Shown piece by piece: positions 16,563 through 47,339 of a DNA stretch of 64,000 nucleotides. Location of the stretch: contig JAPDQB010000011.1 of the NCBI GenBank assembly GCA_034506175.1, forward strand, positions 1 to 64,000, written 5' to 3'. The DNA is from a candidate division KSB1 bacterium. Lineage in GTDB: Bacteria; Zhuqueibacterota; Zhuqueibacteria; Zhuqueibacterales; Zhuqueibacteraceae. Position numbers and translations under genes: made by a program. Numbering within the stretch: position 1 is the stretch's first letter; the number at the start of each line of letters is the position of its first letter. The notes beneath the pieces were generated by a model. The model made no database searches. It saw only the letters and a program-made list of their open reading frames with translations, and was not told the DNA's origin.

Positions 16563-16604
16563 ATCCAACTCGCGATTTGTCACGTGAAGATCAACATGCT
16601 TGCA

Positions 16605-24046: not shown

Positions 24047-26104
24047 TTATTTTATCACCGCAAACTTTCCCTTCTGAATCTCGCCGCTTTCCAAATCTTC
24101 CACCGTGTACAAATAAAGCCCGGTGGCGATGGCTTGATCGTCGGCGGTGACCAGATCCCAGGCGTGCTCGCCGCCGCTGAATTGGACGTTTTCGCCGGCA
24201 TAGACGCTGAACCAGCGCGTGTCGAGGCCGTTGTAAAAACTGGCGTCGTGTTGAATTGTGTCGACGAGATCGCCGGCCAACGTGTAAATGCGAATCTCGC
24301 AGCGCGCCGGCAGATTGAAGAAATACATTTTACGCTCGCGCTCGAGGCGGCCGTCCCACGTCGCGTGGGCGCGGTACGGATTGGGATAGACGCTCACTTT
24401 TTTGCCGGCTTTTTGCGCCGAGGCATCGGCGACCAGCGCGCCGGGAACAACCCGCCGCACCGTGCTCAAACGGCTGGATTCGAGGCTCGGCAAATTCTCG
24501 CTGGGATCGCCGCGATCAAAGGCGGTCACGGCATAGGCATATTGCCAGCCGTTGAGCAGATTCTCATTCACAAATTTGTAACGATACGCCGTGGTGTCGC
24601 CGGCGAAGAAAACCGGCTTGTCCAGGCGCACGGCTTTGAAACCAGTGTCGTAATTGAGGCCGTTGCTCGAATCAAATTCCGCGATGAGCGTCATCGAAGA
24701 GAGCAGATCGCGGCCGGGCAGATCGGCGCCGAGCTGCGAGCGGTAAATACGGTAGCCTTCAAAATCCAATTCGCCGGAAATCAGATCGCGCGAAAATTCG
24801 GCGCTGCGATCCCAGTATAACGTCACGCGCTTATCTGCAACGACGCTGCGGAGGCGCGGGGGAGAGGGCGGCGTCGGCAGCACGTAGCGGTCGATTTGGC
24901 CGTTGCGGTTGAGATCTTCACCGGGATCAAGAATGCCGTTGCCGTTTTTATCCTCGCCGTCGTAGGCGCGCTGCGCCCAACCGGCGTTGGTGAAGAGATT
25001 GAGCTTGCTTTGAAACGTATCTTTATTATTCGGATCGGCGCCGAATTTTCCCGCGCAAACAATGGCAAAAACAAAATTGATGGTTTGTTGCGGGGCGAAC
25101 TTCGCAATCGGCCCGGTGGAAATCAAGCTGATGAAATTCTGCGCCAAGCCCTGCTCGAAGCTGATGATGCCGCCTTTCAAGCGTTCGTAGCGCTCGATGT
25201 CGTTCTGCGGGGTGTCGTTGGTGCGAAAACGCCAGGCGTTGGCGATGCTGCGCTTGCGATAACTCGTGTCGCCTTCCGGCGGCGTCACCCCGAGAATTCG
25301 CATCGCCACGTAAAGTCCGTCTTCGGTGTAGCCGGGGTCGCCGTCGTAATCATAAACATACAGCATGAACAACGAATCGACTTTGCCGATGCCCTTGTGC
25401 TGATAAAACGGCGCGCCGACGCGCGGCGGGGTGATGCGAACATTGCGCACGACAAGATCGCCCATGACACCGAGATAAACCTCCCGCAGCGTGTCGCGGC
25501 TGGCGTTGCGAACAGTGTAATTGAAAATCACGAATGCATCGGCAAACGGGAAATTCCACGCGTAGGTTTCCAGATGCACCGCCAGTTTCAGCGGCGTGTG
25601 TTCGGGAATGAGATCGCCGGTTTCGGGAATGGTGAGATTGGAGTCGGTGAAGTCGGCGATAAAATCCTGGTGGCTGATGGCGCGGGGATCGAAGAAAGGC
25701 GAATCCAACAAGCTCGAGCGCTCCAGCAGGATGTCGTTGGGATTGGCACTGGTGGTAAATTCAAAACCGGGCGCAACAGTGAAATTCAAATTTGACGCAT
25801 CGACCGCGGCGGTGGTGACGAGAAGGCTGCCGTTGTCTTTTCGGGCGCCGATCCACAGGCCGCCGTCAAAGAGATGCTCGATGCCGGAGCCTTTGGGATA
25901 TTCGCACGACGGCAGATCTATCGGGCGTTGCTGCGCGAAACCGTCGCCGAAGGTGCCGTAGTTGGTGATGGTCATGGCGATGTTGCCGACGCTGGTGACG
26001 CGCTGAAAATCCACGGTGGGTTTGTGCAGCGTTTGTTGCGCCAAAGCCGGGAGCGAGAAGCTTATTGACAATGCTGTAATGTAGGAAAATTTTTTATTTT
26101 CCAT
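24047..26104 (-). CDS. Secreted surface protein with Ca-binding-like loop and FlgD-like C-terminus
   Basis: The 685-aa protein has a signal peptide (1-22, ending PALAQ), a beta-rich body, an EF-hand/thrombospondin-like acidic loop DKNGNGILDPGEDLNRNGQI (about 395-414), a FnIII-like segment (VTLYWDRSAEF, about 430-440) and a C-terminal 'VSVYPNPYRAHATWDG ... GLYLYTVED' domain from about 590 that resembles the export-linked sorting/FlgD-like domain. The last about 65 codons are duplicated 1 kb downstream (23038-23233). The start abuts a decayed PIN-gene fragment and lacks a good ribosome-binding site, so its expression signals may have been altered. Confidence 0.8.
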   Translation of the reverse strand: MENKKFSYITALSISFSLPALAQQTLHKPTVDFQRVTSVGNIAMTITNYGTFGDGFAQQRPIDLPSCEYPKGSGIEHLFDGGLWIGARKDNGSLLVTTAAVDASNLNFTVAPGFEFTTSANPNDILLERSSLLDSPFFDPRAISHQDFIADFTDSNLTIPETGDLIPEHTPLKLAVHLETYAWNFPFADAFVIFNYTVRNASRDTLREVYLGVMGDLVVRNVRITPPRVGAPFYQHKGIGKVDSLFMLYVYDYDGDPGYTEDGLYVAMRILGVTPPEGDTSYRKRSIANAWRFRTNDTPQNDIERYERLKGGIISFEQGLAQNFISLISTGPIAKFAPQQTINFVFAIVCAGKFGADPNNKDTFQSKLNLFTNAGWAQRAYDGEDKNGNGILDPGEDLNRNGQIDRYVLPTPPSPPRLRSVVADKRVTLYWDRSAEFSRDLISGELDFEGYRIYRSQLGADLPGRDLLSSMTLIAEFDSSNGLNYDTGFKAVRLDKPVFFAGDTTAYRYKFVNENLLNGWQYAYAVTAFDRGDPSENLPSLESSRLSTVRRVVPGALVADASAQKAGKKVSVYPNPYRAHATWDGRLERERKMYFFNLPARCEIRIYTLAGDLVDTIQHDASFYNGLDTRWFSVYAGENVQFSGGEHAWDLVTADDQAIATGLYLYTVEDLESGEIQKGKFAVIK
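24054..24249. repeat. Direct repeat copy 2, inside the 3' end of the secreted protein gene
   Basis: This is the counterpart of 23038-23233. It is the native coding copy, because the reading frame continues upstream through the whole 685-aa protein. The distance between copies (1016 bp) equals the length of the MntA/HEPN insert plus one repeat. Confidence 0.9.
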
Positions 26105-26779: not shown

Positions 26780-29700
26780 ATGCGTTTTATCTACTGGCGC
26801 GGGCTCCGAGTCACCCTTGTTTTAATTTTAATGATCGGCGTTTTTGCGCCGTCGAACGAGGCGCGTGCTCAAGGCCAGGCCATTTCGACCACGACCAAAT
26901 CCGGTTTTCTCAAATCCAACCAGAGCAAAGTTTTCTACCACAGCGGCAATTGGTGGGCTATCGCGCACCATGATGAAACCAGTCGCTGGTATATTTGGAA
27001 ATTCAGCGGCGGCACGTGGACGATGCTTAACCCCCTCGTGAAAAGCTCGACGATGAAATATGACGCCGTCGTCAATTCCGCGAGTGGGAAGCTTTATTTG
27101 ATCGGCTCGCATGCTTCGGCGACGGAATTTCGGCGCTATAGCTATGCAAGCGGCACGGCGACGTGGACGTTGGACACCGGCTTTCCGGTGAGTCCGAGTT
27201 TTAACAATGACGATGGCGGCAATCCGCTCAGCCTCGTGCAGGCGAAGAACGGCGATCTGTGGATTTTTCGCATTAACAGCAATAAGCTGCAAGCCAAGCG
27301 TTCGACCAACGGCGGCGCGGCCTGGTCGGCAGCGATTGATGTAAAAACCGGCTTGACGGCAGCCACCGGCACCACCGATGCCGTTGCCTTCAGTTCCGGC
27401 GGCAATGACTTTGTCGGCGTCGCCTACGGCGAAACGCCGGCTGCTGGCTCCCAATTCGGTTTTCTGACTCATCAAGACGGCGCGGCGAACGAGACGTGGA
27501 CGGATGAATCCGCCTCGTTGACGCTTTTCGGCGCGGAGCGCGGCAGCAACCAGCTTGCGATGACGACGGATGCCCACAACAATATTTATCTCTTCACCAA
27601 AACCAGCAACGCCGCCGGCAGCGATCCGCGAAATACGCTGTATAAACGCACGAACGATGGCGCGTGGCAGAAATTCAAAGTCAACGCCAGCGCCGGCCAA
27701 GACTGGAAATCGCCCGCCGTGGTTTTCGAGGCCCTCAACAACAAAATTTATGTGATGGGCATCAATACCGCATCGCCGCAGGGCGAATATAAAACGTGCA
27801 CGATTGGCCAGGAATCCACGTTGCAAGCGGAGCCGGTCGCGGTTTTATTTTCGAGTGCCGGCGCAACGTTTGCGGAGCTGAGCGCGCCGCCGGGTGGAAC
27901 GAGCGTTGACATCAGCACCGGGTTGATGGTGGCCGCGGACAACAGCGCCGCCAGCGATATTTGGTATCGCCTGTTGCCGATCGTGAGCGCGACGCCGGTG
28001 ACGATTGGTGCGGTTGTCGTGAACTCGAATCATGCTCATGCCAACGCCGCGTACACGATTCCGTTGACGCTGTCGAGCAACGGCGCGTTGGCGGCCGGCG
28101 CCGGTATTCTCAATTTCCGTTTTCCGGCCGGCACGACGGTTCCGAGCAGCATCGCAGCAAGTCATGTCACGGTCAATGGCACGCCGGCAACGACGGTTGT
28201 TTCCAACAGCGTGACGAGAGAAGTCCTGATCACGACGCCGGTTGATTTGGCGAACAGCCAGAGCTTTTCGGTGGCATTTGCGCTCGGCGCCGGAATTTTC
28301 AATCCCGCGATAGCCGGCGATTACACGCTGCAAGCGTGGACGAGCAGCCAGCCGACGCCGGCTGTTTCTCCGATTTATACGCTGCTGCCGAGCCTCGGCG
28401 CCAATCCGCTTTCCGCGCTGACCAAATCCGGTTACAAGAAATCGAATCAGAGCAAAGTTTTTTATCACGACACGCAGTGGTGGGCGGTGGCTTTTGATGC
28501 CGTTGAAAACCGCTGGTACATTTGGAAATTCACCGGCACGGCGTGGGTCAAGTCGATGGGCATCGATAAAGGCGCGGCGTTCAATTATGACGTTGTGGTG
28601 AACGCCAGCGAGAATAAAATTTACCTTCTCGGCGCGCATAAATCCTTGTCGAAATTCCATCGCTATTCTTACATCGGCGGGGCGTGGAAGATTGATTCCG
28701 GTTTTCCGAAAAGCTTGAATGATTTTGTTCATGTCGATGCGAATAATCCGATCAATCTCGTGCAGGCGAGAAACGGCGATCTCTGGATGTTTCGGATTCG
28801 CGCCGGCATTTTGCAGGCGAAACGTTCGAGTGACGGCGGCGCAACCTGGTCGGCGATTATCCCGGTCAAAACCGGCTTGCGCACGGCGAACGGCACGACG
28901 GATGCTGTGGCGTTCAAATCCGGCGACCACACTTATATCGGCGTCGGCTATGGCGAAACCGATTCATTGACGAGCCAATTTGGTTTTCTCATGCATCAAG
29001 ACGGCGCGGCGGATGATGCCTGGACGGATGAATCGGCGTCGCTGACCTCTTTCGGAACTGAGCGCGCTCGCAATCAAATTTCCATGGCGGTTGATGCGAA
29101 CAATAACGTCTATATTTTTACCCAAAACGCCAGCGTGACGACTGGCAATCCTCACAATACGCTCTACCGGCGGCGGAACACCGGCATCTGGGCCAAGTTC
29201 AAAGTCAATTCGGCCCATGCGTGGAAATCGCCGGCGCTGGCGGTGGATGCGAGCGGCAAGGCGCTTTATCTCATGGGCGTCAACACCGCAACAGATTGGG
29301 GCGAATACAAAACATGCAGTTTCGGCCAGGAGGCGACGCTCGATACGATGAGCGCCGCCGGTTTGTTTGCAGTGAATGGCGCAAAATTTGACGATCTCAG
29401 CGCGCCGGCGGCGAATGTGACGGCATCTTCAGGCTTGATGTTGTGCGCGGATAATCTCACGACGAACAAAATTTATTTTCGTTATCTCGAATTGAGCGGC
29501 AGCACGCCGCTGAATATCGGCGCCGTCGAGGTGGTGTCCAATCAAATCAACGCGAACGCGAATTACACCATTCCGCTGAAGCTCTCCAATCTTGGCGCGC
29601 TCGAGGCGGGCGTCGGTGTGTTGAATTTTATTTTCCCGGCGAACACCTTTGTGCCGAACAACATGCCGGCGACGGCGGTAAAAGTTGACGGTGTGCCGGC

Positions 29701-31753
29701 CGCCACGGTCATTTCGAATAACCTCACCCGACAGGTGACGGTGGTCACGCCGGTGAACTTGCCCGACGATCATTCTTTCAGCGTGGTGTTCGACTCAGCG
29801 GCGGGCGCGGGATTGCTGAACCCGACGACGATTGGCGCGGATTATCGCCTGACGGCTTGGACAAGCTCGCAGCCGGTGCAGATGAAATCGCCGGCTTACA
29901 GTTTGACGCAAACCACAACCACGGTCACGCCGGCAACGGTGGCGCCATTTCCGACCAGCCCGGACAGTTTGGCGGATTATACCTTGACGTTCAATCTCGG
30001 CCCACGCGGCCGGCCAATCGGCGGCAGCAGCACGATCATGATAAAATTTGGCGGGACGACGAAAGTGTCGAATGGCTCGATTAACGGCGTCAAGCTCAAT
30101 ATCAAAGACGCCGTTGCCACTGCCGACTCGATTTCGCGCCAAGTTACCGTGACGATTCCGGTCGGTTTAGGCCTGACCAACAATTCAGCGGTGACGTTGT
30201 TCATCCCGAGGTCGAAAATACGCAATCCTGCGCCGGCCGGATTTTATTCGCTGATGGTGGCGACGAGTGTGGAGACAACATTTGTGGCGTCGCAGCAGTT
30301 TGAAATCAAAGCCAGCAACACCATCGGCGCGCCGATTCCCGGAACAAAAAAGAGCTTTGACCGCAACAATCAAAGCAAGGTGTTTTATCACGGCGGTTTT
30401 TGGTGGGTGGCGGCGCAAGCCAGATCGGATTTGAAATGGTATTTGTGGAAATTCAACGGCCTGATCTGGACGCAAAATGCGTTGATTCATTCGGCGGGCA
30501 AGAGCCGGCCGGATTGCGTGTTGGACGCGCCGGCGAACAAAGTTTATATCGTGCTGCCCGGCGCCGGCACGACTTACATAACGCGCTTGAGCTATGCCGC
30601 TGCCACCGGCAACTGGTCCACTGATAGCGGCTATCCGGTTCTCATCCCGGATTTTGCCCAGGTTTCGGACAAGGCGGTGAATCTGACGCGCGCGAAAAAC
30701 GGCCATTTCTGGGTGTTCCGCGTCACGGATTCGACACTGACCGCCAAACGTTCCGGCGATCTCGGCCGGACTTGGTCGCCACTGATTACCGTCAAAAAGA
30801 AGCTGCATAACGGGGATGGGCTGACCGATGCCACCGCGTTTACGCTCAGCAGCGGCAGTTACATCGGTGTCGGTTATGCCGAGAACAGCGCCCCCGGCTC
30901 GATCTACGGTTTCCTGCGCCATCTCGATACCGACCCGGATTCGGTTTGGACGGATGAGACCGCCCTGATGCCGCAGTTCCCCGGAACCGTCTCGGACGAT
31001 CACGTCAGCATGATCACGTACAGCGGTGAAGTGTTGATGCTGGTGAAAACCAATGGTGGTTCCGCCAACGTCATCAATGTCGGCTTGATGCGGCGCGCCA
31101 CCAACGGCGCCTGGAGCCTTTTCCCGGTGCTGTTGTCCGCCGGTTGGACGCGGCCGGTGATGGCGATCGATCAGAGCAACAACCGGCTTTATCTCTTTGG
31201 CACGCGCGAAGGCACCGTCAAAGTCGGTGAAATGAAATCGTGTGCCATCGGCGATTACGGCTCGCTGCTGGCGGCGAAAATCGATACCGTTTTCAAGAAT
31301 GGGACGGATAATTTTTTCAACGCTTCGGTGCCGTTTCACACCGTCAACCGCACAACGAATTTGCTGATTTGCAACGGCAACGAAAGCCGCGACGAGCTGT
31401 GGTATAATTTGATCAAACTCGACGGCGCGCCCAAAATGGCTGACGAAGCCACCACGGCGGGAACGTTGTCTGATGACGATGTTGACGGTGTGCAAGTCTT
31501 TCCGAATCCTTTCAATCCGCAGACCTCGTTTCGCTTTAAAGTGAAGGAAAATTCGGCAGTGAAATTGCAAATCTTCAATCTTGCCGGCCAGTTGGTGCGC
31601 ACGATTGCCGATGAAGATCTCGCCCCGGGCGTTTATGTTCGGCGTTGGAATGGCCGCAACCAGAACGGCCGCCCGGCCGCCAGCGGCCTGTATTTCTACC
31701 GCCTGCAAATCGGGCAACAGATCATGAATGGACGGATTCAACTGCTGAAGTAG
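26780..31753 (+). CDS. Giant surface protein A: three KSNQSK propellers, Ig-like modules and type 9 sorting domain
   Basis: The 1657-aa protein has a signal peptide (1-31, ending ARAQ). Modules in order: propeller 1 (about 36-400, opening TTTKSGFLKSNQSKVFYH), Ig-like module (about 406-540, VNSNHAHANAAYTIPLTL), propeller 2 (about 548-905, opening TKSGYKKSNQSKVFYHD), Ig-like (about 911-1045), a second Ig type (about 1052-1185, SLADYTLTFNLGPRG), propeller 3 (about 1190-1545, opening KSFDRNNQSKVFYHGG) and the sorting domain (about 1570-1657, VFPNPFNPQTSF to YFYRLQIG). The propellers carry sialidase/BNR-like blades (AKRSTNGGAAWSAAIDVKTG) but no catalytic set I can recognise. It is probably a cell-surface adhesin or ligand binder. 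GAGGAG supports the start. Confidence 0.85.
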   Translation: MRFIYWRGLRVTLVLILMIGVFAPSNEARAQGQAISTTTKSGFLKSNQSKVFYHSGNWWAIAHHDETSRWYIWKFSGGTWTMLNPLVKSSTMKYDAVVNSASGKLYLIGSHASATEFRRYSYASGTATWTLDTGFPVSPSFNNDDGGNPLSLVQAKNGDLWIFRINSNKLQAKRSTNGGAAWSAAIDVKTGLTAATGTTDAVAFSSGGNDFVGVAYGETPAAGSQFGFLTHQDGAANETWTDESASLTLFGAERGSNQLAMTTDAHNNIYLFTKTSNAAGSDPRNTLYKRTNDGAWQKFKVNASAGQDWKSPAVVFEALNNKIYVMGINTASPQGEYKTCTIGQESTLQAEPVAVLFSSAGATFAELSAPPGGTSVDISTGLMVAADNSAASDIWYRLLPIVSATPVTIGAVVVNSNHAHANAAYTIPLTLSSNGALAAGAGILNFRFPAGTTVPSSIAASHVTVNGTPATTVVSNSVTREVLITTPVDLANSQSFSVAFALGAGIFNPAIAGDYTLQAWTSSQPTPAVSPIYTLLPSLGANPLSALTKSGYKKSNQSKVFYHDTQWWAVAFDAVENRWYIWKFTGTAWVKSMGIDKGAAFNYDVVVNASENKIYLLGAHKSLSKFHRYSYIGGAWKIDSGFPKSLNDFVHVDANNPINLVQARNGDLWMFRIRAGILQAKRSSDGGATWSAIIPVKTGLRTANGTTDAVAFKSGDHTYIGVGYGETDSLTSQFGFLMHQDGAADDAWTDESASLTSFGTERARNQISMAVDANNNVYIFTQNASVTTGNPHNTLYRRRNTGIWAKFKVNSAHAWKSPALAVDASGKALYLMGVNTATDWGEYKTCSFGQEATLDTMSAAGLFAVNGAKFDDLSAPAANVTASSGLMLCADNLTTNKIYFRYLELSGSTPLNIGAVEVVSNQINANANYTIPLKLSNLGALEAGVGVLNFIFPANTFVPNNMPATAVKVDGVPAATVISNNLTRQVTVVTPVNLPDDHSFSVVFDSAAGAGLLNPTTIGADYRLTAWTSSQPVQMKSPAYSLTQTTTTVTPATVAPFPTSPDSLADYTLTFNLGPRGRPIGGSSTIMIKFGGTTKVSNGSINGVKLNIKDAVATADSISRQVTVTIPVGLGLTNNSAVTLFIPRSKIRNPAPAGFYSLMVATSVETTFVASQQFEIKASNTIGAPIPGTKKSFDRNNQSKVFYHGGFWWVAAQARSDLKWYLWKFNGLIWTQNALIHSAGKSRPDCVLDAPANKVYIVLPGAGTTYITRLSYAAATGNWSTDSGYPVLIPDFAQVSDKAVNLTRAKNGHFWVFRVTDSTLTAKRSGDLGRTWSPLITVKKKLHNGDGLTDATAFTLSSGSYIGVGYAENSAPGSIYGFLRHLDTDPDSVWTDETALMPQFPGTVSDDHVSMITYSGEVLMLVKTNGGSANVINVGLMRRATNGAWSLFPVLLSAGWTRPVMAIDQSNNRLYLFGTREGTVKVGEMKSCAIGDYGSLLAAKIDTVFKNGTDNFFNASVPFHTVNRTTNLLICNGNESRDELWYNLIKLDGAPKMADEATTAGTLSDDDVDGVQVFPNPFNPQTSFRFKVKENSAVKLQIFNLAGQLVRTIADEDLAPGVYVRRWNGRNQNGRPAASGLYFYRLQIGQQIMNGRIQLLK

Positions 31754-31761
31754 TTCAAACT

Positions 31762-31815
31762 CAAACTCTTACTCGCTTTAATAATTTTTTAAGACGAGTA
31801 AGCGTAGGAGCAAGG
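31762..31815. repeat. Inverted repeat of the CTTACTCG word after giant gene A
   Basis: CTCTTACTCGCTTTAA and GACGAGTAAGCGTAGGAG face each other across an AT-rich loop including TTTTTT. It is related to the repeat at 7419-7495. It may act as a weak terminator between giant genes A and B. Confidence 0.5.
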
Positions 31816-31917
31816 AAGGATGACGAGTACGAATACACCTGCGAATGAAACCACCGGCTGAACTTGAGGACGAGCCGGAACGTAACATCGAGTTATTTTT
31901 GTTTAAAGGACGAAACC

Positions 31918-34900
31918 ATGACATCTCGTGTTTTCAACTGCAGTCGTTTTTTCGGAATAATTTTTTGCGGCTGGCTGATGATCTTGAGCGCGGCGATGAA
32001 AGTCTCGGCTCAGATCGGCGCGCCGATTTCAGCGAACACCAAATTCGGCTTCAAAAAATCCAATCAGAGCAAGGTTTTTTATCACGACAGCCAGTGGTGG
32101 GCGCTGGCGCTGAATGAAAACAACAATCGCTGGGAGATTTGGCGATACAACGGCGCGAGCTGGTTGGCGACAAACTTGGCGGTGCAAAACGGCAACGGGT
32201 TTTATTGCGACGCAGTGCTGAATACCGCCACCGGCAAGCTTTATCTCTTCAGCTCGCACCACACCACTTCACGGTTTCATCGGTTTTCTTACCTCGGCGG
32301 TAACTGGCATCGCGACGCCGGTTACCCGGTGGTGATCTCCGGTTTTGCCAATCCCGATCAAAACAATCCCGGCAGTCTGGTTCGGGCGAAAAATGGCGAG
32401 TTGTGGATTTTTCGCATCCGCAATAACATTTTGCAAGCCAAGCGTTCAACCGATGAGGGGTTGAGCTGGTCGAATACGATTAACGTGAAAACTGGCTTGA
32501 CGACAGCCAACGGTACGACCGACGCGGCGGCGTTCACTTTTTCCGGCGCTGATTACGTTGGTGTGGCGTACGGTTTGGGTGACGCAGTGGGCAGCCACTT
32601 CGGTTTTCTGAGGCATGCCGATGGCAGTTCGGTCAACGTGTGGATCGATGAATCTTCGGCGCTGAATTTTTTCAGTGTCGAACGCGCGAACAATCAAATT
32701 TCTCTGACGGCGGATGCCGGCAACAACCTTTATTTGCTCACGCGCAACGGCAATGCCGGCAACGGCAGCCGGCCGGCCAATTCGTTGTACAAACGCCGGG
32801 CCGACGGGGTTTGGGAAAAATTCAAAGTCAATACCGCCAGCGCCCGGGCGTGGAAATCGCCAGTTCTGGCGATCGACGGCGCGAACAACCGCCTGTACGC
32901 CATGGGCGTTAATATCGCCACACTGTCGGCAGAATACAAAAGCTGCTTGCTGGGTCAGGAGGCAAATTTGGATACGGCGGCGGTTTCCATGTTGCTGTCT
33001 TCACCAGGCGATCAATTCGGCGACCTGAGCGCGCCGGCTGAAAACGTCGATGCCATTCGCGGGCTGATGGTTTTGGGTGAAAACCTGAGCGACAGCGACA
33101 TCTGGTTTCGGCATTTGTCGACGGGCACCACCTTGCCGCTGATCGTGGGAAATGTGAGCGTCGTCTCCAACCAGGTCAATGCCAACGCTACGTACACGAT
33201 TCCTTTGACGCTATCCAACAACGGCGCGTTAAATGCGGGCGTCGGCACGATCAGCTTCCGGTTTCCCGGCAACACATTTGTTCCGAACAATATGCCCGCA
33301 AGCGCGGTTCTCGTCAACGGCACGCCATGCACCACGGTGATCTCAAATAGTGCCTCGCGGCAGGTGAGCCTCACGGTGCCGGTGAATTTGTCCAACAACC
33401 AAAGTTTTTCTGTCGTGTTCAATTCCGCCGCGGGTTTGTTGAATCCGACCACGGTTTCCAACGGCAATACCTATCGCCTCACGGCGTGGACGAGCAGCCA
33501 GCCAACGCAGGTTAATTCGCCGAGATACAACATCGTGGCAGCCACGACGACGGTGACACCGGCGACGGTGAGACTTGCCAATAGCTTGATGTCGGCGTGT
33601 TCGACGTATACCGTGTCGTTTAATTTGGGCGCCCATGGTCGTTTGCTTTCCGGCACGAGCACGATCACGCTGACATTTAACACCGCGACCACTCTCGTTA
33701 CCGGCCCGTTGAGCGGGGTGACGGTCAATGGCGTCGCGGCCGCCGCAACCGGCGACAACGCGATGAAAACCATCACCGTGACGCTGCCGGCGACGGTTTC
33801 GGTGAGCAACAGCGCCGCCATTGCCATCGCGCTGCCGAAGCCGATTGTTTGCAATCCCTCGGCGAATGGCAGTTATACGATGACGGTGAGCACGAGTGTT
33901 GAAACCACACCGGTGGTTTCGAACATCTATCGCATCGCCCCGCTGTTGACGGTCGGCGGGGTTTCTGTCGCGCCGAGTCAAATCAGCGCACCGGCGAGTT
34001 ATACGATTTCGTTGACGCTGGCAAGCAACGGCAGCCTCACCGCGGGTGCTGATGCCTTGACGTTTATTTTTCCCAGTGGCACTGTGGTTTCGAGCACTAT
34101 TGTCGCCAGCCAAATTCTGGTGAACGGCACACCGTCCAGCGTTGTGGTCTCCGATGTGGCGGCGCGCCGGGTGCAGGTGACGACGCCGGTGAATTTAGCC
34201 AATAACGCCGAGGTCAATGTGACGTTTAAAACCGGCGCCGGCGTGACCAATCCGCCGGGCGCCGGAAATTATGCGCTGCAAGCTTTCACCAGCGTGCAAA
34301 CGTATCCGGTCGCCTCGCCGTTTTATGCAATCACCGCCGATACCGGCAGCGCCATCGCCACCAGCACCAAATCCGGCTACAAAAAATCCAATCAGAGCAA
34401 GGTTTTTTATCACGACAACCAATGGTGGGCAATCGCCTTTTACGAGCCGGAGAATCGCTGGTACATTTGGAAATACAACGGCGCGGCGTGGCTCAGAACC
34501 ACCAGTTTGGATAAAGGTTTGAATTATCAGTGGGACGCCGTGCTCAACGCGGCTCTCGGCAAGCTATATTTGATCGGCTCGCACACCGTGGCTTCGGATT
34601 TTCGGCGTTATTCTTATGTCGGCGGCGAGTGGAAACGCGACGCTGGTTTTTCGGTTTCGCTGGCGGATTTTACCGGCCCGGATGCGAGTAATCCGGTCAG
34701 TTTGGCGCAGGCAAAAAACGGCTCGCTGTGGCTTTTCCGGGTGATGAACAATATGCTGCAAGCCAAGCGCTCAACCGACGGCGGCCTCACCTGGTCGGCG
34801 CCGATCAACCTGAAAACCGGCTTGACCACCGCTGCCGGTGTGACCGATGCAGTGGCGTTCACCGCCGCCGGAAAAAATTACGTCGGCGTGGCGTATGCCG

Positions 34901-37698
34901 AGCAGGATAATCCATCGCCGATCAGCAGATTCGGCTTTCTCAAACATCGTGACAGCGACGCCGACACGGTTTGGAGCGATGAATCTTCGTCGCTGACTTT
35001 TTTTGGCAGCGAGCGCGCGCACAATGCGCTGTGTCTGACGGCTGATCAAAATGAAAACCTCTATATTTTTGCCCGCACGATTACCAGCAACGCCAATGAT
35101 CCGCGCAACATTCTCTACAAACGCGGCGGCGGCGGCGCGTGGTTCAAATACAAAGTCAATGCCTCCCCAACGCTGAATTGGAAAACGCCGGCGATTGCGC
35201 TCGACCGCGACAACGGCGTGATTTACACCTTGGGCGTCAATCTCAACACTTCTTTGCCGGAATACAAAGTCTGCGCCATCGGCCAGGAAAGTACTTTGGA
35301 AAATGCGCCCGCCAGCCGCTTGTTTGCCGCAACCAGCTCGGCGTTTGACGATCTAAGCGTGCCGGCGGCCAATTTCGGCAGCACCTCCGGTTTGATGGTG
35401 ACGATTGACAACGTGACGGCCAACGACATTTGGTACCGGCATGTGGCGGTGACCTCGAATATGCCGGTTACAATCGGCAATATCACTGTCGCTTCGAACG
35501 AAGTCAACGCCAACGCCGCGTACACGATTCCCTTGACGCTTTCGGCGAACGGCGGCCTCAACGCCGGAAGCGGCATGATTAATTTTATTTTCCCGAACAA
35601 TACGCATGTTCCGAACAACATGCCGGCCAGCGCGGTGACGGTCAACGGCACGCCGGCGGCGACGGTTCTCGCCAACACCATGACGCGGCAAGTGAGTGTC
35701 ACCACGCCGGTGAATTTAAGTGGCAATCAAAGCTTTTCGGTGATCTTCACGCCCGGCGCCGGGCTGTTGAACCCGACCACGGTTGACAGCACGTATAAGA
35801 TTACCGCCTGGACGAGCAGCCAGCCGGCGCAGGTCAACTCGCCGAATTACAGCTTGCGGCAAGCCACCACGACGATCACGCCGGCCGTGGTCACCTTGTT
35901 GACGACCGATCCGGACAGCATGGCCGATTACACGCTGAATTTCAATCTCGGCGCCCATGGCCGTCTGCTTTCCGGCTCGAGCCAGTTCGTGGTCAAATTC
36001 AACGGCAGCACACAAATCACCCATGGCGTGTTGAGCAGCGCCAAAATCAATTCGGTCGATGCCGCCGCCAGCGGCGACAGTGCTGCCCGTCAAATTACGG
36101 TGACACTGCCGGCGACGGTGTCGTTATCGAACAACTCGCCGGTGACGTTGTATCTGCCGAAGTCGGCGGCCCGCAATCCGGCGGTGGTGGGAGATTATAC
36201 CTTGACGGTGGCGACCAGCGTGGAAACCACGGCGGTGGCGTCGAATCCGTACGCGGTTGAACCGTACAACGGCGTCGGGCGGCCGATTCCCGGAACGACG
36301 GAAAAATTCGACCGCAACAATCAAAGCAAGATGTTTTATCACGCCGGTTTTTGGTGGGTCACGGCACAATCCAAAGTCGATCAGAAATGGTATCTGTGGA
36401 AATTTGACGGCGTGAGCTGGAGCCAGAATATTCTAATTTCTGCCGCCGGCAAAAGCCGGCCCGACTGCATACTGGAAGCTTCCAACAACCGCGTGTACAT
36501 TTTGCTGCCCGGCCCCAGCACGACGTCCATCACGCGTCTCAAATATGCGAGCGGGGTGTGGTCGGTTGACAGCGGCTATCCCTATCCGATTCCCGATTTC
36601 GCGCAAACCTCCGATCGCGGCATCACTCTCGCCCGCGCCAGCAACAGCGATCTCTGGGTTTTTATGATTCGCGATTCGACGTTGTACGCCAAAAAATCCA
36701 GCAACGCCGGCAAAACCTGGTCGGCCTCGCGGATCGCGGTCAAACGCCATTTGCACAATCATGATGGCCTTACCGATGCCGTCGCGTTCACGTTCAGCGG
36801 CGGCAGCTACATCGGCGTCGGCTATGCTGAAAATAGCGCCCCGGGCTCGATTTACGGTTTTCTGCGCCACAATATCAGCGACAACGATACAGTGTGGATC
36901 GATGAAACCGCTTCCATCCCCCAATTTGCCAACACGATCTCGGATGATCACATCAGCATGGCGGTTTATAACAACGCCGTCTTCATGATCATCAAAACCA
37001 ACGGCGGCGGGCCGACCACCACGAACGTCGGCTTGCTGCATCGCGCCAGCAACGGGGTCTGGACGCAATATCCGATTTTACTCTCGACCGGCTGGACGCG
37101 GCCGGTGCTCGCCATCGACGCCACCAACAACATGCTGTACGTGGCCGGCGTGCGCGAAGGCGGCTTCAAAGTTGGCGAGATGAAAAAGGTGGCAATCGGC
37201 AATTACGGCGCCTTGGTCTCGGCGCCGATTGACACGATTTTTCGAAACGCCTCGAACGTTTTCTTCAACATTTCGGTGGCAGCGCACACGGTGAACAGCA
37301 CGACGAAGCTGTTGATTTGCGCCAACAACGAAACGCGCAAGGAAGTTTGGCACAATTTCATTTCGCTCGGCGTTCCCAAGGCCGAGGCGGAGACGGCAGA
37401 TTTGTCGCTCCTGGCCGAGGAAGATTCTGAAGGCGTAAAAGTTTTTCCCAATCCCTTCAATCCGCACACTTCCTTCCATTTTAAACTGAAAGAGAAAGCG
37501 CCGGTGAAACTGCAGATTTTCAATCTCAACGGCCAGCTGGTGCGGACGCTGATCGACGCCGAAATGGAAGCGGGCGTGCATCAAAAACGCTGGAACGGCC
37601 GCGCCGAAAACGGCGCGCCGGCCGCCAGCGGCGTGTATTTTTACCGGCTGCATCTCGGCAGGAAAATTTTTAATGGCCGGATTCAGATGATCAAATAA
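31918..37698 (+). CDS. Giant surface protein B: paralogue of A with an extra Ig block
   Basis: From the ATG at 31918 (AAAGGACGAAACC upstream) the protein is 1926 aa with a signal peptide to about residue 32 (KVSAQ). Order: propeller 1 (about 41-400, NTKFGFKKSNQSKVFYHD), three Ig-like modules (about 407-540, 544-670 and 677-810; one opens LTVGGVSVAPSQISAPASYT), propeller 2 (about 818-1175, TKSGYKKSNQSKVFYHDN), two Ig modules (about 1183-1310 and 1318-1450), propeller 3 (about 1460-1810, TEKFDRNNQSKMFYHAG) and a sorting domain (about 1840-1926). A start 18 codons upstream lacks signal-peptide character. Propeller 3 belongs to the DRNNQSK subtype, as in protein A. Nearby paralogues A and C allow recombination and module exchange. 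Confidence 0.85.
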   Translation: MTSRVFNCSRFFGIIFCGWLMILSAAMKVSAQIGAPISANTKFGFKKSNQSKVFYHDSQWWALALNENNNRWEIWRYNGASWLATNLAVQNGNGFYCDAVLNTATGKLYLFSSHHTTSRFHRFSYLGGNWHRDAGYPVVISGFANPDQNNPGSLVRAKNGELWIFRIRNNILQAKRSTDEGLSWSNTINVKTGLTTANGTTDAAAFTFSGADYVGVAYGLGDAVGSHFGFLRHADGSSVNVWIDESSALNFFSVERANNQISLTADAGNNLYLLTRNGNAGNGSRPANSLYKRRADGVWEKFKVNTASARAWKSPVLAIDGANNRLYAMGVNIATLSAEYKSCLLGQEANLDTAAVSMLLSSPGDQFGDLSAPAENVDAIRGLMVLGENLSDSDIWFRHLSTGTTLPLIVGNVSVVSNQVNANATYTIPLTLSNNGALNAGVGTISFRFPGNTFVPNNMPASAVLVNGTPCTTVISNSASRQVSLTVPVNLSNNQSFSVVFNSAAGLLNPTTVSNGNTYRLTAWTSSQPTQVNSPRYNIVAATTTVTPATVRLANSLMSACSTYTVSFNLGAHGRLLSGTSTITLTFNTATTLVTGPLSGVTVNGVAAAATGDNAMKTITVTLPATVSVSNSAAIAIALPKPIVCNPSANGSYTMTVSTSVETTPVVSNIYRIAPLLTVGGVSVAPSQISAPASYTISLTLASNGSLTAGADALTFIFPSGTVVSSTIVASQILVNGTPSSVVVSDVAARRVQVTTPVNLANNAEVNVTFKTGAGVTNPPGAGNYALQAFTSVQTYPVASPFYAITADTGSAIATSTKSGYKKSNQSKVFYHDNQWWAIAFYEPENRWYIWKYNGAAWLRTTSLDKGLNYQWDAVLNAALGKLYLIGSHTVASDFRRYSYVGGEWKRDAGFSVSLADFTGPDASNPVSLAQAKNGSLWLFRVMNNMLQAKRSTDGGLTWSAPINLKTGLTTAAGVTDAVAFTAAGKNYVGVAYAEQDNPSPISRFGFLKHRDSDADTVWSDESSSLTFFGSERAHNALCLTADQNENLYIFARTITSNANDPRNILYKRGGGGAWFKYKVNASPTLNWKTPAIALDRDNGVIYTLGVNLNTSLPEYKVCAIGQESTLENAPASRLFAATSSAFDDLSVPAANFGSTSGLMVTIDNVTANDIWYRHVAVTSNMPVTIGNITVASNEVNANAAYTIPLTLSANGGLNAGSGMINFIFPNNTHVPNNMPASAVTVNGTPAATVLANTMTRQVSVTTPVNLSGNQSFSVIFTPGAGLLNPTTVDSTYKITAWTSSQPAQVNSPNYSLRQATTTITPAVVTLLTTDPDSMADYTLNFNLGAHGRLLSGSSQFVVKFNGSTQITHGVLSSAKINSVDAAASGDSAARQITVTLPATVSLSNNSPVTLYLPKSAARNPAVVGDYTLTVATSVETTAVASNPYAVEPYNGVGRPIPGTTEKFDRNNQSKMFYHAGFWWVTAQSKVDQKWYLWKFDGVSWSQNILISAAGKSRPDCILEASNNRVYILLPGPSTTSITRLKYASGVWSVDSGYPYPIPDFAQTSDRGITLARASNSDLWVFMIRDSTLYAKKSSNAGKTWSASRIAVKRHLHNHDGLTDAVAFTFSGGSYIGVGYAENSAPGSIYGFLRHNISDNDTVWIDETASIPQFANTISDDHISMAVYNNAVFMIIKTNGGGPTTTNVGLLHRASNGVWTQYPILLSTGWTRPVLAIDATNNMLYVAGVREGGFKVGEMKKVAIGNYGALVSAPIDTIFRNASNVFFNISVAAHTVNSTTKLLICANNETRKEVWHNFISLGVPKAEAETADLSLLAEEDSEGVKVFPNPFNPHTSFHFKLKEKAPVKLQIFNLNGQLVRTLIDAEMEAGVHQKRWNGRAENGAPAASGVYFYRLHLGRKIFNGRIQMIK

Positions 37699-37749
37699 CG
37701 GGGTAACGCAACATTTATGTTGCATTGCAAGAAAGCAAAGAAATTTATA

Positions 37750-37805
37750 ACCACTAAGACACGAACACACCAAGTTTTTTCTTCGTGCCTTTGTGCCTTA
37801 GTGGT
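37750..37805. repeat. Inverted repeat ACCACTAAGACACGA ... CTTAGTGGT between giant genes B and C
   Basis: ACCACTAAGACACGAACACACCAAG-like sequence on the left faces CTTCGTGCCTTTGTGCCTTAGTGGT on the right around TTTTTT. The outer 9 bp pair perfectly and the inner part imperfectly. This AAGGCAC/CTTAGTGG word is one of several unrelated-sequence palindromes in the gaps of this window. Confidence 0.7.
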
Positions 37806-37874
37806 AAAATTTGATTGCGACTTACCCGCGGTGGGATATCGAGATAAAAATACGCTATCGGTTATTTCCTTTGG

Positions 37875-40800
37875 ATGATGAGAGAGCTATTTTGCCAATT
37901 TACGTTGAAGCAGCTTCGCGCCAAACTGGTTGTCTTCTTTTTATTAGCCGCGGTTTCGGCAGACGCCGGCTCCGGCGGGCCCGATAATTTTGGTTATAAA
38001 TGGAAAGACAGCGATGAGGCGGGAGGGCCAAGCTTCAACTACATCAATATTTCCTCGAGCGGAACGCCGGTCAGCGGCTTGGGCGATGACAATTTCGTGG
38101 GGCCGTTTCCGATTGGGTTTTCTTTTAGTTTTTATGGCAAAGCCTACACCGAGTTTTATATCGGCTCGAACGGCTTGATCGGCTTTGGTTCGACGGCAGG
38201 CTTGAGCGCTTTTACCAACCGGGTGATTCCAACGGATTTCACGCCCAACAACATCGTGGCGTGGCTGTGGGATGATTTGATTCCGCGCGACGACACCGGC
38301 GTTTATTATCAAAATTTTTCCGACAAGCTGGTCATTCAATTCGTGCAATACGGCAGCCGCGCCGCCGCCAACGAGCGCGTCAACGCCGAAGTCATTCTCT
38401 ACAACACCGGCAGAATCGTGATTCAATACGCCAGCTTCACCGCCAACTGGCCGCTGAACTCGGCGACGGTCGGCCTGGAAAATGGCGACGGCGCCGACGG
38501 TTTGAACGTCGTTTACAATGCAGCCTATTTGCGCAACGCGCTGGCGATTCGCTTTTCGACCAACGCCATGATTCCGGAAACGCCGGTTTTGTTTTCCCCC
38601 GGCGACGGCGTGACCAATCAGCCGACGTCACCAACTTTGTATTGGAATGCCGCAGACGGCGCAATGACGTATCGTCTGCAAATCGCCACCGATGCACTTT
38701 TTCACAACGTTGTTTTGGACGATTCCACGATCACAGCAAAATCAAAAGCAGTGGGGCCGCTCGCCTATAGCAAAACGTTTTATTGGCGCGTGAAGGCGAA
38801 AAATGCCACTGGCGCCAGCGCCTGGTCCTCGTTTCGGAAATTTTCCACCCAAAATGATCCGCTGTTGGGCGGTGCCATTGCCCCGATCACCAAATCCGGC
38901 TTTCGCAAATCGAATCAAAGCAAGGTTTTTTACTACGACGGCCAGTGGTGGGCCATCGCCCTGAACGAAACCAACACCCGCTGGCAAATCTGGCGCTACA
39001 ACGGCGCGAGCTGGACCGTGACGAACGACGTACAAGCCGGCGCCGCGTATTATTGTGACGCGGTGTTGAACGAGAGCGGCGGCAAGCTGCTGGTTTTCGG
39101 CTCGCATAAATCAACGCCATTTTTCCGGCGTTTTTCCTACGCCGCCGGCGCCTGGAAGCTCGACGCCGGTTACCCGGTCATCCTTTCTGATTTCACCAAC
39201 CCGGATCAGGAAAACCCCGTGAGCCTGGTGCGCGCCAAAAATGGCGAGCTATGGATTTTTCGCATCAATAACAAAACCCTGCAAGCCCGGCGTTCCCGCG
39301 ACGGTGGCAAAACTTGGGAGCCGCGAATCAACGTCAAAACCGGTTTGACCACTTCCAACGGCACCACGGACGCGGTGGCGTTTTCCGTGAACGGCAGCAA
39401 TTATGTCGGCGTGGCTTATGCGGAATGCCATGAATCCGGCAGCAAGTTCGGTTTTCTTTATCGCCGCGACAGTGAACCGGCCACGAGCTGGACGGATGAG
39501 TCGGCGGCTTTGAAATTCTTCGGCAACGAGCGCGCCTGCAATCAGCTTTGCCTAGCGGTCGATGCGAGCAACAATCTGTATTTCTTCACCCACAACGCCG
39601 GCTTTATCGGCCGGAATCCGCGCAACACGCTGTACAAACGCGCCGTCAACGGCGTTTGGCAGAAATTCAAAGTCAACTCGACGATGAATTGGAAAACGCC
39701 GGCAGTGGCCATCGATGAGGCGAACAACCGCCTCTATTTTTTGGGCGTCAACAACAACACGCTGCACACCGAATATAAAACCTGTCTCATCGGCCAGGAG
39801 GCGGCGTTGGACACCGCCGCCGCCCAAACGCTGTTTCATTCGAGCGGCGATCATTTCAGCGACGTCAGCGTGCCGGCCGCCAACGTGAATGCGGTTTCGG
39901 GCTTGATGGTTTGCGGCGACAACGTTTCGGCTGACGACATTCAGTTTCGTCATTTTCCGCTGGGCAGCACCGCGCCGTTGATCGTCGGTGCCGTTCACTT
40001 GAGCAACAGCGAAGCCAACGCCGGCAGCGCGTACACCATTCCGCTGACGCTTTCCAACGCCGGCGCTTTGAAAACCGGCAGTTTGATCAGCATGCGTTTT
40101 TCAAACAACACCTTCGTGCCCGACGCCATCGCCCCGGGCGAAATCAGCGTGAATGGAACGCCGGTCCCGGCCGGTGGGATTATTTCCAACAGTGGCACCC
40201 GCCAGATCACCATCATCTCGCCGGTGAATTTGTCCAACAACCAGACGTTTTCAATCGTGATCAATGCCGGCGCCGGTTTGTTGAATCCGATGAATGCCGG
40301 CAGCTACCGGGTGACGGTGTGGACCAGCAGCCAGCCGGCGCCGGTGAGCTCGCCGAACTACAACATCGAGGCCGCCACGACCAGCGTCACGCCCGCGACA
40401 GTGACGCTGTCCGTCAACGCGCTCGACACGCCGTCGGATTATCTGCTGAATTTCAATCTCGGCAATCAAGGCCGGCTGTCCTCGGGAAACAGCACAATCA
40501 CAATCAAATTCAACAGCGCCAGTGGCGTCACCCAGGGCGTGTTGCATGGCGTGACGGTGAATGGCACCAAGGCCGCGGCGGTTGGCGACGAAAGCGCGAA
40601 AAAAATAACCGTCACGGTGCCGGCGGCGGTGAATTTAGGCAACAATGCCGGCGTCACCCTGTTTGTGCCCAGCCCGATCGTGCGCAATCCCAGGCGCCAC
40701 GGCAACTACACTCTCTCTGTCGCCACCAGCGTCGAAACCGCGGAGGTTGTCTCTGAGCCTTACGAAATTCCGCTTATCGCCGGCCGGCCGATTCCCAACG

Positions 40801-42206
40801 CGGCCAAGGACTTTGACCGCGCCAATCAAAGCAAAATGTTTTATCACGGCGGCGCGTGGTGGCTGACGGCGCAAGCCAAAGACGATACGCGCTGGTATCT
40901 GTGGAAATTCGACGGCACGGCCTGGGAAAAAACGATTCTGCTTTACTCCTCCTCCAAAGTCCGGCCGGATTGCATTCTCGACGGGCTCAACAACAAAGCC
41001 TTTATGTTGCTGCCTGGCGGTAGCACGACTTATTTTCTGCGTTTGAGTTTTGCTGGCGGCAATTGGACGATCGACCCCGGCTATCCCACCATGGTTCCAG
41101 ACTTCGCGCAAGAGTCGGACCACGGGATCAATTTGGCGCGCGCTTACAACGGCAATTTGTGGGTTTTCCGCATCAAAAACGCGAAACTTACCGCCAAGCG
41201 CTCAACCAACGCCGGCCAAACCTGGTCTTCGGAAATTATCATCAAAAGCGGCCTGAACAAAGACAGCGGCTTGACCGACGCCGTGGCTTTTACGTTCAAC
41301 GGCAGCAATTATCTTGGCTTGGGCTACGCGGAAAACAGCACGAAAGGCTCGATTTACGGTTTTCTCCGCCACAAAGACTCCGACGCCAACACCGTGTGGA
41401 CGGATGAAACCGCCGCCATCCCGCAATTTGCCGGCACCACCTCCGACGATCATCTCAACATGGTGGAATACAACGGCACGATTCTGATGGTTGTCAAAAC
41501 CAACGGCGGCAGCGCCTCGACGGTGCACGTCGCCCTGCTGCGCCGCGCTCCCGACGGCAAGTGGTTTCAGCATCCGATCATCATGTCGAGCGGCTGGACC
41601 CGGCCGCTGCTGGTGATCGACGCCAGCCACGACATGCTGTATGTTTTCGGCACGCGCGAAAATGCGCCCAAAGTCGGCGAGATGAAGCGCGTTGCGCTCG
41701 GCGCCTACGACGATTTGCTGGCCGCGCCCATCGACACCATTTTTGCCAACAGTTCCGACAGTTTTTTCGACGCCTCAGTGCCGGCGCATCCGGTTGACGA
41801 CGCGATGAATTTGCTGATCTGCAACGGCAACCAAACGCGCAATGAACTGTGGTATCGTTTGCTGAATCTCAGCGGTACTGCCAAAGCCAATCCCGCGGCT
41901 GCTCTCGCGGCGAATTCGGTGGTGGACGAAAATCTCGAAGGCGTCGCGGTCTTTCCCAACCCCTTCAATCCGCAAACGACATTTCGTTTTCACGTTGCTG
42001 GGCATCTTTCGGTCAAATTGCAAATCTTCAATCTTGCCGGCCAGCTCGTGCGCACCCTGGTGGACGGCGATTTGCCCAAAGGCATGCACCAGCGCCGCTG
42101 GAACGGCCAGAGCGACGCCGGCCAACGCGTCGCCAGCGGCTTGTATTTTTATCGTTTGCAAATCGGGGAGAAGATGTTTCGCGGCAAGGTGAGGATGATC
42201 AAATGA
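37875..42206 (+). CDS. Giant surface protein C: N-terminal nidogen-like and FnIII parts, two propellers, sorting domain
   Basis: The 1443-aa protein begins with a signal peptide (about 1-31). An N-terminal domain with GFSFSFYGKAYTEFYIGSNG and VAWLWDDLIPRD (about 85-145) resembles the nidogen-like or subtilase-associated domain. Next come a FnIII module (about 233-330, TPVLFSPGDGVTNQPTSPTL), propeller 1 (about 338-690, KSGFRKSNQSKVFYYDGQ), two Ig modules (about 702-970), a final propeller (about 977-1330, KDFDRANQSKMFYHGG) and the sorting domain (about 1356-1443). It lacks one internal propeller relative to A and B. The start codon context (TTTCCTTTGG) is weak, and ATG 37875 or 37878 are equivalent. 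Confidence 0.85.
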   Translation: MMRELFCQFTLKQLRAKLVVFFLLAAVSADAGSGGPDNFGYKWKDSDEAGGPSFNYINISSSGTPVSGLGDDNFVGPFPIGFSFSFYGKAYTEFYIGSNGLIGFGSTAGLSAFTNRVIPTDFTPNNIVAWLWDDLIPRDDTGVYYQNFSDKLVIQFVQYGSRAAANERVNAEVILYNTGRIVIQYASFTANWPLNSATVGLENGDGADGLNVVYNAAYLRNALAIRFSTNAMIPETPVLFSPGDGVTNQPTSPTLYWNAADGAMTYRLQIATDALFHNVVLDDSTITAKSKAVGPLAYSKTFYWRVKAKNATGASAWSSFRKFSTQNDPLLGGAIAPITKSGFRKSNQSKVFYYDGQWWAIALNETNTRWQIWRYNGASWTVTNDVQAGAAYYCDAVLNESGGKLLVFGSHKSTPFFRRFSYAAGAWKLDAGYPVILSDFTNPDQENPVSLVRAKNGELWIFRINNKTLQARRSRDGGKTWEPRINVKTGLTTSNGTTDAVAFSVNGSNYVGVAYAECHESGSKFGFLYRRDSEPATSWTDESAALKFFGNERACNQLCLAVDASNNLYFFTHNAGFIGRNPRNTLYKRAVNGVWQKFKVNSTMNWKTPAVAIDEANNRLYFLGVNNNTLHTEYKTCLIGQEAALDTAAAQTLFHSSGDHFSDVSVPAANVNAVSGLMVCGDNVSADDIQFRHFPLGSTAPLIVGAVHLSNSEANAGSAYTIPLTLSNAGALKTGSLISMRFSNNTFVPDAIAPGEISVNGTPVPAGGIISNSGTRQITIISPVNLSNNQTFSIVINAGAGLLNPMNAGSYRVTVWTSSQPAPVSSPNYNIEAATTSVTPATVTLSVNALDTPSDYLLNFNLGNQGRLSSGNSTITIKFNSASGVTQGVLHGVTVNGTKAAAVGDESAKKITVTVPAAVNLGNNAGVTLFVPSPIVRNPRRHGNYTLSVATSVETAEVVSEPYEIPLIAGRPIPNAAKDFDRANQSKMFYHGGAWWLTAQAKDDTRWYLWKFDGTAWEKTILLYSSSKVRPDCILDGLNNKAFMLLPGGSTTYFLRLSFAGGNWTIDPGYPTMVPDFAQESDHGINLARAYNGNLWVFRIKNAKLTAKRSTNAGQTWSSEIIIKSGLNKDSGLTDAVAFTFNGSNYLGLGYAENSTKGSIYGFLRHKDSDANTVWTDETAAIPQFAGTTSDDHLNMVEYNGTILMVVKTNGGSASTVHVALLRRAPDGKWFQHPIIMSSGWTRPLLVIDASHDMLYVFGTRENAPKVGEMKRVALGAYDDLLAAPIDTIFANSSDSFFDASVPAHPVDDAMNLLICNGNQTRNELWYRLLNLSGTAKANPAAALAANSVVDENLEGVAVFPNPFNPQTTFRFHVAGHLSVKLQIFNLAGQLVRTLVDGDLPKGMHQRRWNGQSDAGQRVASGLYFYRLQIGEKMFRGKVRMIK

Positions 42207-45342: not shown

Positions 45343-45398
45343 TTGACGTCAACCAAATTAAAGCGTCAACTGAGGAGGAATAAGGGAATTGCTTGGCG

Positions 45399-45893: not shown

Positions 45894-45905
45894 GGTTCGA
45901 GCGTT

Positions 45906-46265: not shown

Positions 46266-46506
46266 AGATTAACCTCCTCAAAGATAGACTGAGATTCTCC
46301 TCGCGTAACGAAGCTCTATCAAAAAAGTCAAGCATGAATTTCAGATGGATACTCTTGTTTACCTGCGGGCTGCGTTTACATCTTCGTACTGCACGCGCCA
46401 ACACAAACCAAACATAACGGAGCGCAAACCGATTGGTGGTGAGGCTTTCCGATGAGGTATTTTAATATAGACAATTCCGGTTAAATTGCAAATAGTTTTT
46501 TCTTTG

Positions 46507-47209: not shown

Positions 47210-47265
47210 CGCTTACCTCGCTAATTGAAAATCATCAATCAAAATAAAGTGTTACCCTATTCTTA

Positions 47266-47293
47266 AATATAGCACAAAATATGACTGATACAA
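47266..47293 (-). promoter_or_regulatory. Possible promoter of the PIN toxin-antitoxin pair
   Basis: Minus-strand TTGTAT (47288-47293), 16-nt spacer, TATATT (47266-47271). It is A/T-rich against a G/C-rich background, so chance matches are easy. Confidence 0.35.
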
Positions 47294-47339
47294 CCAATTA
47301 GTTTTTACAAGTTAAGCTGTTCAGCTTGAAAAGCTTCTC

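What the first reader, a model, noticed from the sequence alone, without database searches (positions are those of the whole stretch)
26780..42206. Three giant tandem paralogues built from 'NQSK-[VM]-FYH' propeller modules
Proteins of 1657, 1926 and 1443 aa share a roughly 350-residue propeller that opens KSNQSKVFYH or DRNNQSK[VM]FYH followed by a tryptophan-rich 'WW-A ... RWYIWKF' pattern. They also share Ig-like modules and an almost identical sorting domain. I know no named family with this opener. The propeller order is constant: one or two KSNQSK types first and a DRNNQSK type last, next to the sorting domain. This suggests a modular surface system with fixed membrane-near and membrane-distal roles.
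Basis: partly seen in the sequence, partly recalled or inferred. Interest (0 to 1): 0.75.

Follow-up and report, generated by a model that had tools for sequence, protein, structure and literature searches.

The report
Tandem surface propellers, two pocket types
An uncultured bacterium of the KSB1 group carries three neighbouring genes for giant exported proteins built from seven-bladed propeller domains of two kinds, which differ in their likely sugar-binding pocket and almost always sit in the same order; this is a new branch of a known fold rather than a new kind of system.

Summary
Three adjacent genes encode T9SS cargo proteins with eight ~350-residue propellers in the order A-A-B, A-A-B and A-B (A = KSNQSK, B = DRNNQSK), joined by two Ig-like module types. 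The genome is KSB1-like and has SprA, PorV and PorU. A confident model (pLDDT 95.7) shows a seven-bladed propeller; its closest solved folds are rhamnosyl-glucuronate and ulvan lyases, GH145 and sialidases. By sequence it sits at the edge of Pfam BNR_2, so it is not family-less, but it forms its own unnamed subfamily, with a distant unnamed 'KPQSKLW' family, also in Arthrobacter. In related genomes A is first in all 20 multi-propeller proteins and B is last in all 14 two- or three-propeller proteins, but three giants end in a third type, so 'B last' is not absolute. New here: B keeps an ancestral charged set (D211, H213, R264, R49) on the predicted pocket face; the 24 A domains have lost most of it and fixed other residues, without signs of decay. 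Best reading: anchored, multivalent glycan-binding surface proteins whose C-terminal propeller keeps the ancestral, possibly catalytic, pocket. Ligand and activity are untested.

The parts
26780..31753 (+). Gene 1: signal peptide - A - Ig1 - A - Ig1 - Ig2 - B - T9SS type A sorting domain, 1657 aa
26912..27982 (+). Propeller type A (gene 1, first)
   Evidence: 532.6 bits; A clade
28004..28384 (+). Ig1 module (gene 1)
28439..29494 (+). Propeller type A (gene 1, second)
   Evidence: 549.6 bits
29516..30307 (+). Ig1-Ig2 linker pair (gene 1)
30362..31420 (+). Propeller type B (gene 1, last)
   Evidence: 526.4 bits; B clade; D-D-H and R pocket signature
31493..31750 (+). T9SS type A sorting domain (FlgD_ig / TIGR04183)
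31918..37698 (+). Gene 2: signal peptide - A - Ig1 - Ig2 - Ig1 - A - Ig1 - Ig2 - B - sorting domain, 1926 aa
32056..33123 (+). Propeller type A (gene 2, first)
33145..34332 (+). Ig1-Ig2-Ig1 linker (gene 2)
34384..35451 (+). Propeller type A (gene 2, second)
35473..36258 (+). Ig1-Ig2 linker pair (gene 2)
36313..37368 (+). Propeller type B (gene 2, last)
37438..37695 (+). T9SS type A sorting domain
37875..42206 (+). Gene 3: signal peptide - unnamed N-terminal module - Ig-like (Rha78A_N-like) - A - Ig1 - Ig2 - B - sorting domain, 1443 aa
38628..38849 (+). Ig-like module, weak Pfam Ig_Rha78A_N match (below cut-off)
38907..39962 (+). Propeller type A (gene 3); the domain modelled alone (pLDDT 95.7)
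39984..40769 (+). Ig1-Ig2 linker pair (gene 3)
   Evidence: all-beta stretches in the model
40818..41870 (+). Propeller type B (gene 3, last)
41946..42203 (+). T9SS type A sorting domain

Best explanation
The three genes encode outer-membrane-exported surface proteins. A Sec signal peptide takes each across the inner membrane. The C-terminal type A sorting domain takes it through the T9SS (SprA/PorV), where PorU would cut it off and, if KSB1 behaves like Bacteroidota, anchor the rest to LPS. The ectodomain is a string of seven-bladed BNR-type propellers on an Ig stalk that binds, and perhaps processes, polysaccharide (likely acidic) at the central pocket of each propeller. B, nearest the anchor, keeps the ancestral charged set (K6, R49, D51, D155, D211, D212, H213, R264). 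The outer A propellers keep D51, D155 and K6 but have replaced D211, H213, R264 and mostly R49, and fixed their own residues (H67, P104, E208, N212), so they likely recognise a different or less charged ligand feature. Shown: anatomy, type split, order, export machinery in the genome, predicted fold. Inferred: pocket geometry, glycan ligand, division of labour.
For: Export: FlgD_ig and TIGR04183 over cut-off in all three proteins; SprA 863 bits, many PorV-family proteins over cut-off including one in the window, two full PorU. Fold: pLDDT 95.7, pTM 0.93, 26 strands of three or more residues in seven blades. Best solved matches are carbohydrate-active propellers: PL42 rhamnosyl-glucuronate lyase 7esl (E 1.9e-9, TM 0.60), GH145 BT3686 5muk (TM 0.66), ulvan lyases, sialidases. 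Sequence matches in the PDB are nearly all sialidases, best E 3.4e-5. Context of relatives: the KPQSK form is fused to an alginate-lyase-like domain, to CBM96 and LamG. Pocket: D211 is 21/21 in B and 1/24 in A, H213 19/21 and 0/24, R264 19/21 and 0/24; the B state is shared with the KPQSK family. 19 of 27 type-discriminating columns fall on the predicted top face against 41% of columns, Fisher p = 0.0017. A is not decaying: orthologous A domains are 67-69% identical against 68-75% for B in one genus pair, with no constant difference elsewhere.
Against: No ligand or activity is known for any member. Top PDB matches are only TM 0.5-0.66 with about 12% identity, so they fix the fold class but not function. 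No dedicated CAZyme or transporter partner was seen conserved beside the cluster across genera. PorU cutting and LPS anchoring are untested in KSB1.
Confidence: 0.55

Rival explanations
1. Enzyme plus lectin: B is an active exo-lyase or glycoside hydrolase of an undescribed CAZy family and the A propellers are inactive binding copies that hold the polymer.
For: The B set (two Asp, His, Arg, Lys at blade starts) is kept from KPQSK proteins, Arthrobacter included, through to B. Best folds are PL42/GH145/PL24 enzymes. In FoRham1 (PL42) the anterior pocket uses Arg and His residues, and loss of one residue inactivates natural GH145 members (PMC8377490).
Against: No catalytic residue of PL42, PL24 or GH33 was mapped onto B; a conserved charged pocket can also simply bind. 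Two B2 domains lack H213 and R264 together.
Confidence: 0.25
2. Purely adhesive or structural surface fibres (cell-cell or surface adhesins); the pockets bind a protein or nothing specific.
For: Large repetitive Ig/PKD/cadherin-type stalks in the family. Module number varies. Whole-construct fold matches include integrin alpha chains and LRP-type receptors, though with low TM.
Against: Strong, type-specific conservation on one face of the propeller over deep divergence is more than a spacer needs.
Confidence: 0.2
3. PorZ-like part of the T9SS itself: two propellers plus a sorting domain, delivering LPS to the sortase.
For: 5m11 (PorZ) is the top fold match of the A-Ig-Ig-B-CTD construct, and PorZ has two seven-bladed propellers plus a CTD (PMC5121618).
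Against: NCBIfam PorZ matches only the sorting domain (19-28 bits against a cut-off of 260), and a separate near-full-length PorZ candidate exists at G000:C31 (244.9 bits). Three to four paralogues and absence from G081 and G072 do not fit a core part.
Confidence: 0.03
4. The order rule carries no function; it is inherited order after whole-gene duplication, and A/B differences are drift.
For: Orthologous propellers group by position with few independent origins; the rule is broken in three giants.
Against: Several ancestral residues changed in every A, others became invariant in A (E208, N212, P104, each 24/24), and A domains evolve about as slowly as B. Internal expansions (A to A-A, extra Ig) never put B first.
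Confidence: 0.2

Closest known systems
Pfam BNR_2 (PF13088), sialidase superfamily
   Same: Asp-box motif S-x-D-x-G-x-T-W in blade 3; genes 1 and 2 pass the cut-off
   Different: Only blades 2-5 align; just 19 of 56 single propellers match at E 1e-3; seven blades against six in sialidases
PL42 / former GH145 propellers (FoRham1 7esl; BT3686 5muk) and PL24/PL25 ulvan lyases
   Same: Seven-bladed carbohydrate-active propeller, best fold matches
   Different: About 12% identity, TM 0.5-0.66; no sequence-level match to these among the listed PDB hits; catalytic residues not shown to be present
PorZ (P. gingivalis T9SS component, 5m11)
   Same: Two propellers followed by a T9SS sorting domain (PMC5121618)
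   Different: PorZ profile matches only the sorting domain; separate PorZ candidate in the same genome
Unnamed KPQSKLW propeller proteins (KSB1, Arthrobacter plasmid pAD51)
   Same: Homologous over the whole propeller (134-254 bits with the A2 profile; weaker with A1); share the D-D-H / R set
   Different: Opener KPQSKLW instead of NQSK[VM]FYH; single propeller; other stalk domains; separate clade

Membership tests
T9SS type A cargo | C-terminal sorting domain of the type A family | tested here: met
   TIGR04183 30-36 bits against cut-off 23 in all three; FlgD_ig over cut-off
T9SS type A cargo | T9SS translocon, shuttle and sortase in the genome | tested here: met
   SprA, PorV family, PorU x2, all over cut-off
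T9SS type A cargo | CTD removed and protein attached to LPS | not testable with these tools
   needs proteomics
Pfam BNR_2 (sialidase superfamily) | Whole-protein score over the curated cut-off | tested here: inconclusive
   Genes 1 and 2 over (40.2, 42.3 vs 31.4), gene 3 just under (31.0); 19 of 56 single domains at E 1e-3
GH33 sialidase | Six-bladed propeller | tested here: not met
   The strand order of the model gives seven blades; the six of GH33 is general knowledge
GH33 sialidase | Catalytic Asp, Tyr/Glu pair and Arg triad | not tested
   Sequence match covers part of the domain only; no coordinates to superpose
PL42 / GH145 | Seven-bladed propeller fold | tested here: met
PL42 / GH145 | Match to the BNR_4 model that covers FoRham1 (PMC8377490) | tested here: not met
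   BNR_4 in gene 1 only, 16.1 bits against 27.3
PL42 / GH145 | Catalytic His/Arg set in the anterior pocket | not testable with these tools
   no model coordinates available for superposition
PorZ | NCBIfam NF052228 over cut-off | tested here: not met
   19.3 and 27.6 bits, CTD only, cut-off 260; other PorZ candidate in genome

The most novel reading that the evidence does not exclude
The NQSK/KPQSK propellers are an undescribed carbohydrate-active family, and the giants are single-chain enzyme-plus-lectin machines in which an active ancestral propeller (B) next to the membrane anchor is fed by outer propellers (A) whose pocket was rebuilt for binding.
Probability: 0.2. Interest if true: 0.65.

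Novelty: new variant of a known kind. Interest (0 to 1): 0.42.

Why it matters
A recognisable, unnamed seven-bladed propeller subfamily with two position-linked pocket types in one chain gives a clean natural experiment on how a propeller pocket is re-purposed after duplication, and a handle on what the uncultured KSB1 phylum puts on its surface. The wider KPQSKLW family, also in Actinomycetota and often beside CBM96 or an alginate-lyase-like domain, is a candidate for a new glycan-binding or CAZy family that could be tested with one or two purified domains.

Tried and rejected
PDB sequence search with gene 1 alone: no hits. Viral contigs with the A1 profile: no relatives; a second viral scan was mis-cut to the part behind the propeller, so it says nothing about the propeller. 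Phages with the KPQSK propeller and plasmids with the B propeller: none. Conserved partner genes: upstream block shared with the sister genome G080 only; G077 and G078 have other neighbours. PorZ identity considered and rejected. A propellers as decaying copies considered and not supported. Literature: no paper held contains the motifs and none joins KSB1 with type IX secretion. The phylum search is limited to 82 held genomes, and the wider genome scan works from exact motif patterns, so absence of the NQSK branch outside KSB1 is not proven.

Full report
OBSERVATION. The three ORFs are intact, with the stated lengths. The second starts at ATG 31918 (1926 aa); a TTG at 31864 would add 18 residues. 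A profile from ten propellers finds eight full-length copies in the window (526-565 bits): gene 1 A-A-B, gene 2 A-A-B, gene 3 A-B. The Ig-like stalk has two module types, and the last A and B are joined by Ig1-Ig2 in all three genes. The sorting domains are 59-67% identical, not near-identical. A fourth paralogue, A-Ig1-Ig2-B2, lies on contig C5, and two distant single-propeller proteins with a KPQSKLWW opener on C23.

WHERE IT IS. Relatives found by pattern in 84,980 species are KSB1 MAGs plus one MAG labelled only 'bacterium', whose contig lengths equal those of the held genus mate G080. In 82 genomes of the phylum, the NQSK clade occurs in two families of one order; weaker KPQSK-type matches reach other families. 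The genus mate G081 and G072 lack it, so it is not a core gene. The three-gene cluster has 1:1 orthologues in G080, with the upstream block shared; other genera carry A-B genes in other surroundings.

EXPORT. All three proteins end in a type A T9SS sorting domain, and the genome has SprA, many PorV-family proteins (one at 12588-13646 in the window) and two PorU. This step is well supported; cleavage and LPS anchoring are inferred from Bacteroidota.

FOLD. AlphaFold2 on 56 sequences gives pLDDT 95.7 and pTM 0.93 for the A propeller of gene 3. By my reading of the strand order, the strands fall into seven blades whose innermost (A) strands begin at residues 7, 49, 106, 152, 209, 262 and 317. The opener NQSK is the start of the first blade's innermost strand. 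Best solved folds are PL42, GH145, ulvan lyases and sialidases, at TM 0.5-0.66. The A-Ig-Ig-B-CTD piece modelled at pLDDT 83 and pTM 0.46: domains usable, arrangement not.

ORDER RULE. A maximum-likelihood tree of 62 propellers separates first-position (A) from last-position (B) domains. The B1 clade of 13 has support 99/100; the deeper A/B forks are moderate (91/96 and 96/93). A is first in all 20 multi-propeller proteins of the family, counting partial genes at contig ends and one split over two frames (G075). B is last in all 14 two- or three-propeller proteins that reach the sorting domain. Three giants (G077, G078 and the split G075 gene) run A, B2, (B2), C; C groups with the A side (85/63, weak) and lacks the B signature. 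So 'A first' holds without exception, 'B last' does not. These are about seven orthologous groups, and order is largely inherited, so the counts are not independent events. In the sister family most proteins carry a single, B-like propeller, several of them on a PKD stalk; one (G074) has an A-like then a B-like propeller.

POCKET SPLIT. Q4, D51, D155, H186, R245 and K291 are shared by nearly all. R49, D211, H213 and R264 are conserved in B and in most single-propeller proteins; D211 (12/13), H213 (13/13) and R264 (11/13) also hold in the KPQSK family, where residue 49 is more often Lys or Ser. One of those is an Arthrobacter plasmid protein. All 24 A domains lack H213 and R264, 23 lack D211 and 20 lack R49, but they share E208, N212 and P104 (24/24 each). 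So B keeps the ancestral state and A is derived. Discriminating columns concentrate on the predicted top face, 19 of 27 against 41% of columns (Fisher p = 0.0017, a test made after seeing the pattern). A domains evolve about as slowly as B, which argues for a changed rather than a dead pocket.

FUNCTION. Carbohydrate links: fold matches, and for the KPQSK form fusion to an alginate-lyase-like domain, CBM96 and LamG. No ligand is known. I commit to multivalent surface glycan binding, with B as the conserved and possibly catalytic site (0.55). The listed explanations overlap (the enzyme-plus-lectin rival is a stronger form of the best one), so the confidences do not sum to one.

NOVELTY. The fold, export route and propeller-stalk-anchor plan are known. 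The subfamily has no family model of its own in the libraries searched and no paper held names its motifs; its two-pocket arrangement is new to my knowledge. New variant of a known kind.

Noticed in passing
L062:4459-7737 (G074:C69): One propeller appears to be inserted inside another: profile matches 1-243, then a whole 1-351, then 249-351 in one frame.
   Followed up: no
L012:774-5837 (G000:C23) and L069:2358-7166: KPQSK propeller fused to TIG and InlB-type repeats and an alginate-lyase-like domain, with a T9SS sorting domain.
   Followed up: partly
12588-16583 (-): A PorV-family protein over cut-off next to a TonB receptor with a carboxypeptidase-regulatory-like domain.
   Followed up: no
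24047-26104 (-): 685-aa protein upstream of the cluster, no Pfam hit but a weak T9SS sorting-domain match; 75% identical over 318 aa in G080.
   Followed up: no
43411-52058 (-): Three SpoIIE-type phosphatases, two with GAF domains, in a short stretch next to the cluster.
   Followed up: no
L051:2892-7622 (G080:C60); L059 (G075:C627): Frame breaks: the sorting domain of the G080 orthologue of the fourth paralogue stops half-way, and the G075 giant is split over two overlapping frames. Assembly error or pseudogene not decided.
   Followed up: no
37962-38564 (+): N-terminal module of gene 3 (about residues 30-230) without any Pfam match; possibly an undescribed extracellular domain.
   Followed up: no
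G000:C55:3177-10997: Two full-length PorU-type sortases side by side.
   Followed up: no
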